Made by a program: the position numbers and the translations under genes. DNA of 39,298 nucleotides from Desulfurococcaceae archaeon (GTDB taxonomy: Archaea > Thermoproteota > Thermoprotei_A > Sulfolobales > NBVN01): the NCBI GenBank assembly GCA_020833415.1, contig JAJHQJ010000009.1:1-39298 (forward strand). The letters run 5' to 3'. The notes below the pieces were generated by a model, which worked only from the letters and a program-made list of their open reading frames with translations, was not told the DNA's origin and ran no database searches. Shown in pieces: positions 14,146 to 22,540 of this stretch (its first letter is position 1; every line of letters begins with the position of its first letter).

Positions 14146-15801
14146 CTACAGCTTAATAACCCTCCTTAGTACCGCCTCACCCCTGTAGTCGGGTAGTAGT
14201 ATAGGTGCTCTCCTGGACTCAGGTACTCCTAGAAGCTTCAGCTCCTCGGTAAAGCTCTCGAGGTGTTTAAGCGATACCCTGGGTTTAGGTAATCTCTTCA
14301 CCAGTCTAGATACTTCGATACCAGCCCTCCTACCGAATACGAAGATATCCGCAGTAGAATTTCCTACAAGTCTGTTCTTCCCGTGAATACCTCCGGTAAC
14401 CTCACCGGCTGCTAGGAGGCCGCCGAGGGGCTCGCCTGAGGGTCTTAGTACGTGGGTCCACTCATCGATTAGTACCCCACCGTTCTGGTAGTGTAGGGTT
14501 GGGTACGTAAGTATAGGCTCTACAGTTATGTCTATACCGTGCCTTAGGAACATCCTGTAGAGTGCTGGGAGTTCCCTCCTAATCGTACCAGAACCCTTCA
14601 ACATATCTATTACCGGGGTATCCAGCCACACACCACAGGTACCCGTTGGGGTTATAATGCCCCTACCCTCGGTACACTCCCTTATAATGGCCGAGGCCAC
14701 TACGTCTCTGGGTTCGAGCTCGTATACGAACCTCTGCCCCTTAGTGTTTACGAGCTGACCACCAATACTCCTAGTCTTCTCAGGTATGAGCTCGCCGAGT
14801 ATTGCCTCAGGCCAGGCAACTCCCGTTGGGTGGTACTGGAGCGTGTCTAGGTCTACTAAGCCTGCACCGACCCTGTAGGCTAGTACTAGGCCATCACCTG
14901 TAGCACCGTAGTGGTTAGTTGTGGGGAAGCCGGCTATGTGTAGCCTACCGATACCACCCGTAGCTAGTACGGTAACCTTACTACGTACAACTCTGTACTC
15001 CCCGGTATCGAGGTTTAGGAGTACTGCACCACTTACGGCACCGGTCTCGGGGTCGGTAAGTAGTTCTATAGCTGAGTGGAACTCCAGTACCGGGATCCCG
15101 AGGGCTCTTACCTCATCCTTCAGTACCCTCATAACCTCGAGACCTGTGTAGTCACCGCAGCAGTGTAGTCTAGGTCTCGACGCGCCACCACCTGAGAGTC
15201 TCTCCAGGTCTTCACCAACACGGCTCCACCTAACGCCGAGCCCCTCAAGCCACTTTATCACTAGGGGAGCCTCCTCGGCGAGGACCCTCACGAGCCTGGG
15301 GTTATTCGTGAAGTGAGCCCCTGCGAGGGTGTCTAGGTAGTGTATTACGGGGCTATCGTCAGGTCCTGTAGCTGCCTGGGTACCGCTCTGGTACTTTACG
15401 GTATTGCTATCCCCGAGTCTGAGCTTCGTTGCTATTAGAATACCTGTAGGGTCTACACCCTCCTCAACAGCCCACCAGGCAGCAGCTAGTCCAGCACCGC
15501 CCGAGCCCACGATCAGTACATCTACATCGTAGTCTACGTGGTCTAGGTCTACCTCACCGGGTCTAACAAGGGGCCAGGACTCCAGTAGGTCAGCTATCGT
15601 AGAGTACATCACCATTCCCTTACACGGCCCGACCCCGAGGGCCCTCTTTAGCTCAGGCTTGTAGTCCGGGTGCCAGGCCCTTACTATACTCTCCCTCTCG
15701 TCGAGGGTCAGGCGCCGAGGTGGGGGTGCTCTAAGCCTCTCCCTACGGGTCTCCTCAACTACCTCAATAGCCTTCCTAAGCTCCGGTGGGTACCCGCTCA
15801 C
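14146..15801 (-). CDS. Fumarate reductase / succinate dehydrogenase flavoprotein, TfrA-like
   Basis: VDVLIVGSGGAGLAAAWWAVEEG; KYQSGTQAATGPDDSP; HYGATGDGLVLAYRVGAGLVDLDTLQYHPTG; TLHYQNGGVLID; GGIHGKNRLVGNSTADIFVFGRRAG. Confidence 0.9.
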   Translation of the reverse strand: MSGYPPELRKAIEVVEETRRERLRAPPPRRLTLDERESIVRAWHPDYKPELKRALGVGPCKGMVMYSTIADLLESWPLVRPGEVDLDHVDYDVDVLIVGSGGAGLAAAWWAVEEGVDPTGILIATKLRLGDSNTVKYQSGTQAATGPDDSPVIHYLDTLAGAHFTNNPRLVRVLAEEAPLVIKWLEGLGVRWSRVGEDLERLSGGGASRPRLHCCGDYTGLEVMRVLKDEVRALGIPVLEFHSAIELLTDPETGAVSGAVLLNLDTGEYRVVRSKVTVLATGGIGRLHIAGFPTTNHYGATGDGLVLAYRVGAGLVDLDTLQYHPTGVAWPEAILGELIPEKTRSIGGQLVNTKGQRFVYELEPRDVVASAIIRECTEGRGIITPTGTCGVWLDTPVIDMLKGSGTIRRELPALYRMFLRHGIDITVEPILTYPTLHYQNGGVLIDEWTHVLRPSGEPLGGLLAAGEVTGGIHGKNRLVGNSTADIFVFGRRAGIEVSRLVKRLPKPRVSLKHLESFTEELKLLGVPESRRAPILLPDYRGEAVLRRVIKL

Positions 15802-16542
15802 CTACCCCACCTCTAGGGACTGAGGTAAACGACCTGTCTTCAGGAACTCCTCGTAGACTCTCCTAACCTCGCTAGTGGGCGTTGAGAGTAGCTTCTCAAA
15901 GACCTTGCCGTACTTACCACTCTCGATCTCCCTAACCCTCTCCTCCAAGGACTTCGACCTCGGTGTGTAGTAGAGACCTACGACCCTCCCTACAAGCCTG
16001 AACACCGGTGGGTGCCTTATCTCAGCTGGACACCTCAGACTACAGAGTCCGCAGGAGATGCAGTCGAAGGTTAGCTCCGCAGCCTTCTTAAGGTCCCCCC
16101 GTAGGATTGCCTGGATGGCGTCCATGGGGCTAAGCCCCTGTGGACAGGCCTTAGAGCACGCATTGCAGCTTACACACCTCGAGATCTCGGGGTACAGCTT
16201 GAGTACGTAACCTGGGTCTGGTCTAAGCTCACCCCTCTTAGGTACGTACTCCACGAGGGGGACGTAGGGTACTAAACTAATGTACATACCGTCCACTACG
16301 GCCGTCTGGCATGCTAGACCTACCCTAATCTTGTAGTCCCCGGGGAGTCTGTAGACTACCGGACACGCGCCGCAGAAGCCACCCCTACAGCCAGCACCAC
16401 GTGTAAACCTAAACCCAGCATACTCCAGGGCCTTCATTATCGTTAGGCCCTTGGGGACCCTGTAGGCCTCCCCGTTAAAGTATATGGTGAGGTATTCCCT
16501 TACTTGGTGAGCTCCCTCAATACCCGAGGTCAAGTCCCCCAC
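15802..16542 (-). CDS. Fumarate reductase iron-sulfur subunit, TfrB N-terminal-like
   Basis: [2Fe-2S] ligands GCRGGFCGACPVVY...LACQ; two 4Fe-4S-type motifs CVSCNACSKACP and CISCGLCSLRCP. Confidence 0.88.
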   Translation of the reverse strand: MGDLTSGIEGAHQVREYLTIYFNGEAYRVPKGLTIMKALEYAGFRFTRGAGCRGGFCGACPVVYRLPGDYKIRVGLACQTAVVDGMYISLVPYVPLVEYVPKRGELRPDPGYVLKLYPEISRCVSCNACSKACPQGLSPMDAIQAILRGDLKKAAELTFDCISCGLCSLRCPAEIRHPPVFRLVGRVVGLYYTPRSKSLEERVREIESGKYGKVFEKLLSTPTSEVRRVYEEFLKTGRLPQSLEVG

Positions 16543-16566
16543 CTAGAGTACCTCCTGGTAAACAAT

Positions 16567-20610: not shown

Positions 20611-20611
20611 C

Positions 20612-22540
20612 CTACACCACCCCCAGTACAGCTCTAACTACTGCTAGGGCCTGCTCATCGCGGTAGTTCCTTAGCTGTATAGCTCCAACAGGACACGAAG
20701 CCGTGCACGCACCACAGCCCTCGCAGAGTACCTCGTTAACGCGGGCCCTACCCTCGACGATCTCGACAGCACCGTACGGGCATACGGTTACGCAGACTCT
20801 ACACCCATTACACTTATCCCTATCTACCTCAGCAACGATAGGCTCCTTCTCGATGTAGCCCTTCAGGAGTAGCTCGGCAGCCTTAGCAGCGGCACTCGCA
20901 GCCTGAGCTATGGACTCGGGTATGTCCTTAGGTCCCTGCGCGGTACCGGCTACCAGCACACCCGCAGTAGGGGTCTCAACAGGTCTTAACTTAGGGTGTA
21001 CCTCGCTAACGAACATGAACTGGTCTACGGGTATCTTCAGCATCTCAGCGAGTCTCCTATCGAGAGCTGATACCATACCTGGTGCTAGGACGACTAGGTC
21101 GGCCCTAACAGTGAACTCGCGGTTGTCTAGGAGGTCGAACCCCTCAACTACTACGTCACCCGTCGCTGCATCTCTATACACTCTCGATACCCTACCCTTA
21201 ATGTACACAGCCCCATGTTCCTGGGCTCTCTTGACGAACTCCTCAAAGCCCTTACCACCGGCTCTCACATCGATGTAGATTACGTAGGCCTCACCCTCAG
21301 GTACCCTCTCGAGGAATAGTAGGGCGTGCTTAGCCGTGTACATACAGCATATCTTTGAGCAGTACGGTAGGTGGTTAACATCGCGTGAGCCAACGCACTG
21401 TACGAAGACAACCCTCCTCACGGGTCTACCGTCGCTCGGTCTTCTAATCTCCCCACGTGTAGGTCCCTGGACGTCCAGTATCCTCTCGAACTGTAGGGAG
21501 TCTATAACGTCATTCGCAGCTCCGTAGCTGTACTCGGGTATCTTCTCAGCTGGGTAGAGCTCGTACCCTGTAGCTACTACTATAGCCCCTACAACCTCCT
21601 CTACAACCTCACTCCGCTGCTCTAGGTCTACAGCCTTAGCCGGACATACCTTAACGCAGCGACCGCACTTAGTGCAGTGCTCGAAGTCTACTACGTAGGC
21701 TGAGGGTACTGCCTGGGCGAAGGGTATGTAGATAGCCTTCCTCCTGCTGAGTCCCCTGTTAAACTCGCTGGGGACCTCAACCGGGCATACCCTCTCACAG
21801 AAACCGCAGAGAGTGCACGTACCCACCTTAACACCCCTAGGTCCAACCCTTATCCTCACCTTGAAGTTTCCTACGTAGCCCTCAACGCTCTCAACCTCAG
21901 CTAGGGTGTATATCCTAACTAGTGGATGTCTCGCTACCTCAGCCATAAGCGGGGTTAGTATACACTGCGCACAATCCAGTGTAGGGAAGGTCTCGTGTAG
22001 CATCGCCATCTTACCCCCTATAGTTGGTGACTTCTCGACCAGTACTACCGGTATACCCATCTTAGCTAACGTGAGGGCTGCCGTTATCCCAGCTATACCC
22101 CCACCTACAACAAGAGCCTTCTTCACTGCACTAACCTTAACCGGCTCGTAGGGCTTGTTACCGAGTAGCTTAGCAACAGCTCCCGCAATAATCCTCACAG
22201 CCTTCTCCGTAGCTATGTCCTTGTCTAGGTGGACCCAGCTATCGAGTTCCCTGATGGAGGCCATCTCAAGCCTATACCTGTTCAGACCCGCCCTCTCAAC
22301 TACCCTCGCGAAGGTCTCGAGGTGTAGCGATGGTGTGCAGGCGGCTACGACTACACCGTCTAACCCGTACTCCCTAATAGCCCTAGCTATGAGCTCCTGC
22401 CCAGGCTCGGAGCACATGAAGACGTAGTCCTCCGCGTAGACTACCCCGGGGAGCTTTCTAACCGCCTCAACAACCTTCTTAACATTGACTACTCCGGCTA
22501 TGTTAACACCGCAGTGGCATATGAAAACCCCTATACGCAT
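20612..22540 (-). CDS. hdrA: HdrA, FAD-containing bifurcating-type heterodisulfide reductase subunit
   Basis: GVFICHCGVNIAGVV; VVGGGIAGITAALTLAKMG; CTLCGFCERVCP, CTKCGRCVKVCP, CNGCRVCVTVCP, CEGCGACTASCP; YCSKICCMYTAKHALL. Confidence 0.95.
   Translation of the reverse strand: MRIGVFICHCGVNIAGVVNVKKVVEAVRKLPGVVYAEDYVFMCSEPGQELIARAIREYGLDGVVVAACTPSLHLETFARVVERAGLNRYRLEMASIRELDSWVHLDKDIATEKAVRIIAGAVAKLLGNKPYEPVKVSAVKKALVVGGGIAGITAALTLAKMGIPVVLVEKSPTIGGKMAMLHETFPTLDCAQCILTPLMAEVARHPLVRIYTLAEVESVEGYVGNFKVRIRVGPRGVKVGTCTLCGFCERVCPVEVPSEFNRGLSRRKAIYIPFAQAVPSAYVVDFEHCTKCGRCVKVCPAKAVDLEQRSEVVEEVVGAIVVATGYELYPAEKIPEYSYGAANDVIDSLQFERILDVQGPTRGEIRRPSDGRPVRRVVFVQCVGSRDVNHLPYCSKICCMYTAKHALLFLERVPEGEAYVIYIDVRAGGKGFEEFVKRAQEHGAVYIKGRVSRVYRDAATGDVVVEGFDLLDNREFTVRADLVVLAPGMVSALDRRLAEMLKIPVDQFMFVSEVHPKLRPVETPTAGVLVAGTAQGPKDIPESIAQAASAAAKAAELLLKGYIEKEPIVAEVDRDKCNGCRVCVTVCPYGAVEIVEGRARVNEVLCEGCGACTASCPVGAIQLRNYRDEQALAVVRAVLGVV

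What the first reader, a model, noticed from the sequence alone, without database searches (positions are those of the whole stretch)
14146..22540. Soluble hydrogenase-Hdr-fumarate reductase locus: candidate H2-driven electron-bifurcating fumarate reductase
Seen: hdrA, mvhD, mvhG, mvhA, hdrC, hdrB, frdB and frdA are contiguous on one strand, most overlapping or separated by fewer than 40 nt. No FrdC/FrdD membrane anchor lies in the window. Established: HdrABC-MvhADG bifurcates electrons from H2 to ferredoxin and CoM-S-S-CoB in methanogens, and TfrAB couples CoM/CoB thiols to fumarate reduction. Inference: HdrBC may pass electrons directly to FrdB/FrdA, so that H2 reduces fumarate and ferredoxin together. 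I see no methanogenesis genes here. The natural acceptor of HdrB is unknown.
Basis: partly seen in the sequence, partly recalled or inferred. Interest (0 to 1): 0.88.

Follow-up and report, generated by a model that had tools for sequence, protein, structure and literature searches.

The report
Hydrogen-driven fumarate reductase gene cassette
A hot-environment archaeon carries eight adjacent genes that most likely build one soluble machine which burns hydrogen on fumarate and uses the surplus energy to charge ferredoxin; the same gene set recurs in distant archaea and some bacteria, which suggests an answer to what the methane-making Hdr complex does in microbes that make no methane.

Summary
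In detail: hdrA-mvhD-mvhG-mvhA-hdrC-hdrB-frdB-frdA lie contiguous on the minus strand (22540 to 14146), overlapping or at most about 24 nt apart, next to fumarase and malic enzyme. All predicted metal ligands are present. The host MAG (Thermoprotei, Desulfurococcales/Ignisphaera-like; 82% complete) has no mcr, no ComA and no SdhC anchor, and its only CCG-domain protein is this HdrB. The cassette is not unique: the same eight-gene order recurs in at least 19 loci from Desulfurococcales, Thermoplasmata, Thorarchaeota and bacterial Bipolaricaulota, and frdB-frdA also sits beside HdrA2-type Hdr modules. Eight further cassette genomes likewise have only one CCG protein, which argues against a thiol/disulfide shuttle and for direct HdrB-to-FrdB transfer. 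Best reading: a soluble, quinone-free, electron-bifurcating H2:fumarate/ferredoxin oxidoreductase (Mvh-Hdr input, Tfr-like output). Pieces were noted before (Tfr or SdhA syntenic with Hdr), but I found no paper describing this coupling. Caveats: no biochemistry; direction unproven; the window's FrdA has Pro where most relatives have the substrate-binding Thr; four related cassettes lack the bridging Ni-Fe cysteines, so H2 is not always the donor.

The parts
20612..22540 (-). hdrA: FAD and Fe-S bifurcating subunit, stand-alone (no fused MvhD)
   Evidence: 663.7 bits to HdrA of Methanothermobacter marburgensis (8rvu); cluster cysteines >=97% conserved in cassette HdrAs
20197..20610 (-). mvhD: [2Fe-2S] adaptor between hydrogenase and HdrA
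   Evidence: FlpD 161.7 bits
19257..20213 (-). mvhG: hydrogenase small subunit, 12 conserved Cys (three Fe-S clusters)
17790..19253 (-). mvhA: [NiFe] hydrogenase large subunit, group 3c type; both Ni-binding motifs intact (ICGFC...; DPCNSCATH)
17413..17802 (-). hdrC: two [4Fe-4S] ferredoxin-like subunit
16567..17406 (-). hdrB: two CCG domains with all ten non-cubane cluster Cys; start probably the ACG at 17406 (ATG in relative L004)
   Evidence: only CCG protein in the MAG
15802..16542 (-). frdB (TfrB N-terminal-like): [2Fe-2S] domain + HdrC-like dicluster [4Fe-4S] domain; the 3Fe-4S-type site has the fourth Cys
14146..15801 (-). frdA (TfrA/FrdA-like flavoprotein) with family-specific ~90-aa N-terminal extension, Asn at the covalent-FAD His position, catalytic residues conserved except Thr->Pro at 340
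22607..23203 (-). fumarate hydratase beta (Fumerase_C), 66 nt upstream of hdrA
   Evidence: same linkage in L004, L007-L011, L013
23216..24103 (-). fumarate hydratase alpha
24103..25446 (-). malic enzyme
11814..12956 (+). succinyl-CoA ligase beta (convergent neighbour)
12969..13847 (+). succinyl-CoA ligase alpha (convergent neighbour)

Best explanation
The locus encodes one soluble, quinone-free, flavin-based electron-bifurcating H2:fumarate/ferredoxin oxidoreductase. H2 is split at MvhA; electrons pass MvhG and MvhD to the HdrA flavin (as in solved Mvh-Hdr). One electron of each pair goes uphill to ferredoxin; the other goes downhill through HdrC and the two non-cubane clusters of HdrB. From HdrB it passes directly into the HdrC-like domain of FrdB, then [2Fe-2S], then FAD of FrdA, where fumarate is reduced to succinate. 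In effect, fumarate replaces the CoM-S-S-CoB heterodisulfide as the high-potential acceptor. The cell makes or consumes the fumarate with the adjacent fumarase, malic enzyme and succinyl-CoA ligase; reduced ferredoxin could feed the membrane-bound group 4 [NiFe] complex of the same genome, giving fumarate respiration without quinones. Shown: genes, ligands, catalytic residues, conservation, absence of Mcr/ComA/SdhC, single CCG protein. Inferred: complex formation, direct HdrB-FrdB transfer (about 0.7), bifurcation with H2 (about 0.65), predominantly reductive direction (about 0.65).
For: The same eight-gene order occurs in at least 19 loci in archaea and Bipolaricaulota. FrdA follows FrdB in 69 of 73 loci with room. 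The input module is exchanged (MvhADG, HdrA2 with fused MvhD, degenerate hydrogenase) while HdrBC-FrdBA stays. The only CCG protein in own, G001-G007 and G016 is the cassette HdrB, so a thiol shuttle lacks its second CCG enzyme. FrdB, HdrC and HdrB match successive parts of the single TfrB chain (positions 19-84, 131-222, 364-475 of NF004898); in Methanothermobacter Tfr that chain joins fumarate reduction to the CCG module (Heim 1998, own knowledge). FrdB C-terminal part resembles HdrC. All HdrA/B/C, MvhD/G and NiFe ligands are kept. FrdA has HPTG, E341, R344, R365, H437, R477 and invariant Asn instead of the covalent-FAD His in 71 of 71, as in non-covalent fumarate reductases. Fumarase and malic enzyme are contiguous (also L004, L007-L011, L013). 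No mcr, ComA or Sdh_cyt. 2H2 + fumarate + Fd gives about -70 kJ/mol under standard conditions at pH 7.
Against: No biochemical data. The window's FrdA (with L003, L004, L005, L012, L102, L105, L106) has Pro at 340 where 66 of 71 have the substrate-binding Thr, so fumarate affinity or substrate may differ. HdrB keeps a complete disulfide-reductase site, so an unknown disulfide may be its natural partner. HdrC and the HdrC-like part of FrdB may compete for one HdrB surface. In about a third of loci HdrB is not immediately upstream of FrdB (50 of 76 have it). Four relatives have lost the bridging Ni-Fe cysteines, so hydrogenase activity is not universally required. MAG only 82% complete; the cassette is absent from five same-genus genomes. 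hdrB lacks a canonical start.
Confidence: 0.55

Rival explanations
1. Same complex, opposite direction: succinate oxidation by electron confurcation. Succinate electrons and reduced ferredoxin are combined at HdrA to evolve H2 (amino-acid fermentation: glutamate -> succinyl-CoA -> succinate -> fumarate -> malate -> pyruvate).
For: Genome has five 2-oxoacid:ferredoxin oxidoreductases, typical of peptide fermenters, plus adjacent sucCD, fumarase and malic enzyme. Kohtz 2022 (PMC9723716) proposes this direction for Culexarchaeia.
Against: Energetically uphill unless H2 is very low: at 80 C and 1e-5 atm H2 the reverse still needs 18 to 33 kJ/mol from the succinate/fumarate ratio. Non-covalent FAD (Asn133) is associated with fumarate reductases poor at succinate oxidation (own knowledge of E. 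coli FrdA H44 mutants).
Confidence: 0.25
2. Two separate enzymes linked by a diffusible thiol/disulfide: Mvh-Hdr reduces an unknown disulfide, and a Tfr-like enzyme oxidises the thiols with fumarate.
For: HdrB keeps all ten cluster Cys. This scheme is proposed for Hermodarchaeota (PMC8163825), Sifarchaeia (PMC9723677) and Mnemosynellales (PMC9635834).
Against: A shuttle needs two CCG sites, one to reduce the disulfide and one to oxidise the thiols; own, G001-G007 and G016 have a single CCG protein. No ComA in 12 genomes, though other CoM routes were not searched.
Confidence: 0.12
3. A non-bifurcating H2:fumarate reductase: Mvh-Hdr simply relays both electrons to FrdAB, wasting the energy.
For: Nothing in sequence proves bifurcation; four relatives lack the Ni-Fe site.
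Against: HdrA is close to proven bifurcating HdrA (663.7 bits) with all clusters kept; without bifurcation HdrA and its extra ferredoxin domains would be superfluous.
Confidence: 0.1
4. FrdA acts on a substrate other than fumarate/succinate.
For: Pro at the Thr244/Thr377 position in the window clade.
Against: The other catalytic residues are kept; adjacent fumarase and malic enzyme; most of the family has Thr.
Confidence: 0.08

Closest known systems
HdrABC-MvhADG (H2:CoB-CoM heterodisulfide,ferredoxin reductase) of methanogens
   Same: All six subunits with their cluster ligands; HdrA 663.7 bits to 8rvu
   Different: No mcr or ComA; FrdB-FrdA appended directly downstream of HdrB; acceptor inferred to be fumarate
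Thiol:fumarate reductase TfrAB of Methanothermobacter
   Same: FrdA-like flavoprotein without covalent FAD; 2Fe-2S + dicluster + CCG modules
   Different: Here the TfrB parts are separate (FrdB, HdrB) and wired to HdrC/HdrA/Mvh; TfrA and TfrB model cut-offs not met
Type E SQR/QFR and 8-methylmenaquinol:fumarate reductase (SdhABE)
   Same: FrdAB partnered by an HdrB-like CCG protein; HdrB scores best against MFR SdhE (96.8 bits, cut-off 500)
   Different: No membrane anchor or quinone evidence; HdrA/HdrC/Mvh instead
HdrA2B2C2 and other HdrABC modules with exchanged partners (Fdh, MetVF)
   Same: HdrABC as a reusable bifurcation core
   Different: Known cases exchange the donor module; here the acceptor end is extended
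Tfr or SdhA syntenic with Hdr and Eha/Ehe (Mnemosynellales, PMC9635834; Culexarchaeia, PMC9723716)
   Same: Linkage of a fumarate reductase flavoprotein to Hdr already noted
   Different: Those papers invoke CoM/CoB or an unknown disulfide, or succinate oxidation; no Mvh-Hdr-FrdBA unit described

Membership tests
HdrABC-MvhADG | MvhA L1/L2 Ni-Fe motifs (ICGxC; DPCxxCxxH) | tested here: met
   ICGFC and DPCNSCATH in window MvhA
HdrABC-MvhADG | HdrA FAD + ferredoxin-domain clusters, close to bifurcating HdrA | tested here: met
HdrABC-MvhADG | HdrB with two complete CCG motifs | tested here: met
   ten Cys, 99-100% conserved in 68
HdrABC-MvhADG | CoM-S-S-CoB as acceptor (Mcr, CoM synthesis) | tested here: not met
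   no MCR_alpha in 24 genomes, no ComA in 12; own MAG 82% complete
HdrABC-MvhADG | electron bifurcation to ferredoxin | not testable with these tools
   needs enzyme assay
Thiol:fumarate reductase TfrAB | TfrA equivalog score | tested here: not met
   288 bits, cut-off 718; best-scoring NCBIfam model nonetheless
Thiol:fumarate reductase TfrAB | TfrB as one FrdB-HdrB fused chain | tested here: not met
   separate frdB and hdrB; no such fusion among the 80 loci
Thiol:fumarate reductase TfrAB | two 4Fe-4S sites rather than 3Fe-4S, non-covalent FAD | tested here: met
   invariant Cys in FrdB; Asn133 in 71/71; cluster types inferred from ligands
Quinol:fumarate reductase (FrdABCD) | membrane anchor FrdC/D or SdhC | tested here: not met
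   none in window; no Sdh_cyt in 9 genomes; FrdC/FrdD-specific families not searched
Fumarate reductase flavoprotein | substrate and proton-transfer residues | tested here: inconclusive
   H324, E341, R344, R365, H437, R477 conserved; Thr340 replaced by Pro in the window clade
MFR/SdhE | SdhE equivalog score | tested here: not met
   96.8 of 500 bits

The most novel reading that the evidence does not exclude
Fumarate is the direct acceptor of a whole class of 'orphan' HdrABC complexes in non-methanogenic archaea and bacteria: a modular bifurcating fumarate reductase whose donor module is exchangeable (MvhADG, HdrA2-type, or a hydrogenase that has lost Ni-Fe), allowing quinone-free fumarate respiration through ferredoxin and a membrane hydrogenase.
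Probability: 0.45. Interest if true: 0.85.

Novelty: new variant of a known kind. Interest (0 to 1): 0.7.

Why it matters
HdrABC-MvhADG is reported in many genomes without Mcr, usually with an 'unknown disulfide' as acceptor (for example PMC9723716, PMC8163825). A conserved cassette that joins HdrBC to FrdBA makes a specific, testable proposal: fumarate is that acceptor. If true, it is a further type of flavin-based bifurcating enzyme, a soluble alternative to quinone-dependent fumarate respiration, and a possible link between reductive C4 metabolism and ferredoxin supply in hyperthermophiles.

Tried and rejected
Dicarboxylate/4-hydroxybutyrate cycle as the setting: no HpaB/4-hydroxybutyryl-CoA dehydratase in the MAG (MAG incomplete), so not relied on. 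Mirror-tree correlations between cassette proteins did not exceed those with fumarase or malic enzyme, so they say nothing about contact. Natural FrdB-HdrB fusions: none in the loci; only HdrC-HdrB (L018) and HdrA-MvhD (many). AlphaFold model of FrdB (mean pLDDT 85) gave low whole-chain TM-scores because of inter-domain orientation; only its domain-level match to HdrC is used. Methanogenic function: rejected. The second AlphaFold job, two protein searches and the representative search were not used.
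Full report
WHAT IS THERE. Profile searches support each name. Upstream in the same direction lie malic enzyme and both fumarase subunits, 66 nt from hdrA. Downstream, convergent, are the two succinyl-CoA ligase subunits. The surroundings therefore deal with C4 dicarboxylates. The hdrB start is odd: the ORF caller's GTG at 17373 would remove the first CCG cysteine. The reading frame extends upstream through YYPGC, and the start codon that is ATG in relative L004 is ACG here.

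THE HOST. The MAG has 1.25 Mb in 85 contigs, 82% complete. Its closest named relatives by FrdB are MAGs labelled Ignisphaera, Desulfurococcaceae and Thermosphaera. It has five 2-oxoacid:ferredoxin oxidoreductase genes, two group 4 NiFe/complex I-like gene sets with both Cys pairs (C54, C68), and a group 3b sulfhydrogenase (C83). No HpaB-type 4-hydroxybutyryl-CoA dehydratase was found, no mcr, no ComA, no Sdh_cyt anchor, and no second FrdA-like flavoprotein. The only CCG-domain protein is this HdrB. The cassette is patchy: 8 of 150 genomes of the order, and none of the five others of the genus, so it looks gained or lost as a unit.

CONSERVATION. A FrdB alignment (A1; 33 sequences, all cluster Cys invariant) found 392 encoding places in genome contigs, of which the best 80 were fetched. 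Labelling their ORFs shows the identical eight-gene order in at least 19 loci: Desulfurococcales, Thermoplasmata, a 'Thermococci' MAG, Thorarchaeota and Bipolaricaulota/Acetothermia. Njordarchaeota have seven genes up to the contig end. FrdA follows FrdB in 69 of 73 loci with room; HdrB lies within 900 nt upstream in 50 of 76. Where Mvh is missing, HdrA is usually of the HdrA2 type with fused MvhD. So HdrBC-FrdBA is the constant part and the input module varies. These loci were found through FrdB, so the counts describe FrdB-bearing loci and not all Hdr operons.

LIGANDS AND ACTIVE SITES. HdrB: all ten Cys of two CCG motifs; HdrC: eight; MvhG: twelve; HdrA: all expected Cys. MvhA has both Ni motifs. 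FrdB has four Cys for [2Fe-2S] and eight for two [4Fe-4S]; the site that is [3Fe-4S] in quinone-linked FrdB has its fourth Cys, which suggests a partner other than quinone (inference). The FrdB model matches HdrC chains (5odc, 8rvu) as well as 2Fe-2S domains, so its C-terminal half is HdrC-like, the kind of domain that docks on HdrB. FrdA keeps HPTG His324, Glu341, Arg344, Arg365, His437 and Arg477. The covalent-FAD His is Asn in 71 of 71. In the window and its near relatives Thr340 is Pro; in other fumarate reductases this Thr binds a substrate carboxylate (own knowledge of Fcc3 Thr377 / E. coli Thr244), so substrate affinity should be tested.

HOW IT LIKELY WORKS. Established (own knowledge; Wagner 2017 and Kaster 2011 as cited in PMC6085437 and PMC7325909): Mvh-Hdr bifurcates H2 electrons at HdrA to ferredoxin and, through HdrC, to HdrB. 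Established for Tfr (Heim 1998, cited in PMC8163825): one TfrB chain carries the 2Fe-2S, dicluster and CCG parts, with TfrA reducing fumarate. The window's FrdB, HdrC and HdrB match successive stretches of the TfrB model. The simplest union is that HdrB hands electrons to FrdB. The strongest new support is the count of CCG proteins. A thiol shuttle, as proposed for some Asgard archaea and Mnemosynellales, needs one CCG site to reduce the disulfide and another to oxidise the thiols, yet own, G001-G007 and G016 each have only one CCG protein. Energetics are ample: 2 H2 + fumarate + Fd(ox) -> succinate + Fd(red) is about -70 kJ/mol at 25 C, pH 7 with Fd at -500 mV, and still negative at 80 C and 1e-5 atm H2. 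The reverse, H2 production from succinate plus ferredoxin, becomes possible only at very low H2 and a high succinate/fumarate ratio; it remains the main rival because the host looks like a peptide fermenter.

A NATURAL VARIANT. In four Desulfurococcales cassettes (L008, L009, L010, L013) the MvhA homologue has lost the second Cys of both Ni motifs, the ones that bridge Ni and Fe, while MvhG Cys, HdrABC and FrdBA remain. Those cassettes presumably cannot use H2 at MvhA; another donor must enter, or MvhA has become structural. This shows that FrdBA, not the hydrogenase, is the constant partner of HdrBC.

PRIOR KNOWLEDGE AND NOVELTY. Papers in the held library note Tfr syntenic with Hdr and Eha (PMC9635834) and SdhA with HdrA2B2C2 and Ehe (PMC9723716), and list Mvh-Hdr with an unknown disulfide in many genomes. 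None of my ten paper searches found a description of an Hdr-linked or bifurcating fumarate reductase (among them). Subscription papers, such as Appel 2021 on HdrA modules, were not readable here, so priority is uncertain. I rate it a new variant of a known kind.

Noticed in passing
L008 7405, L009 4695, L010 7415, L013 7418 (MvhA homologues): Large hydrogenase subunit in the same operon position has lost the bridging Cys of both Ni-Fe motifs (e.g. ICGSDSW, DLCIPGA) while MvhG keeps all twelve Cys: a hydrogenase-derived subunit apparently without a Ni-Fe site.
   Followed up: partly
window 15801-14146 (FrdA residue 340): Thr to Pro at the substrate-carboxylate-binding position in the window clade (also L003, L004, L005, L012, L102, L105, L106); 66 of 71 family members have Thr.
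   Followed up: partly
window 17406-17404: hdrB seems to start at ACG where relative L004 has ATG; either a non-canonical start or an assembly error.
   Followed up: partly
L020, L024, L029, L031, L032, L035, L044, L048, L051, L058 (DHVE2/Aciduliprofundum-like): Different layout: hdrC-hdrB-hdrA, a second HdrA-like ORF, mvhD, then frdB-frdA, in most of them followed by malic enzyme and succinyl-CoA ligase; the donor module there is unidentified.
   Followed up: no
window 2656-5015: Class III aminotransferase overlapping a 2,4-diaminopentanoate dehydrogenase C-terminal-like protein, followed by asparaginase (5273-6289) and a dicarboxylate symporter (7535-8821): possible amino-acid catabolic cluster.
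   Followed up: no
window 6291-7232, 10741-11688, 31507-32736, 37677-38723: ORFs of 313-409 aa without a confident Pfam match.
   Followed up: no
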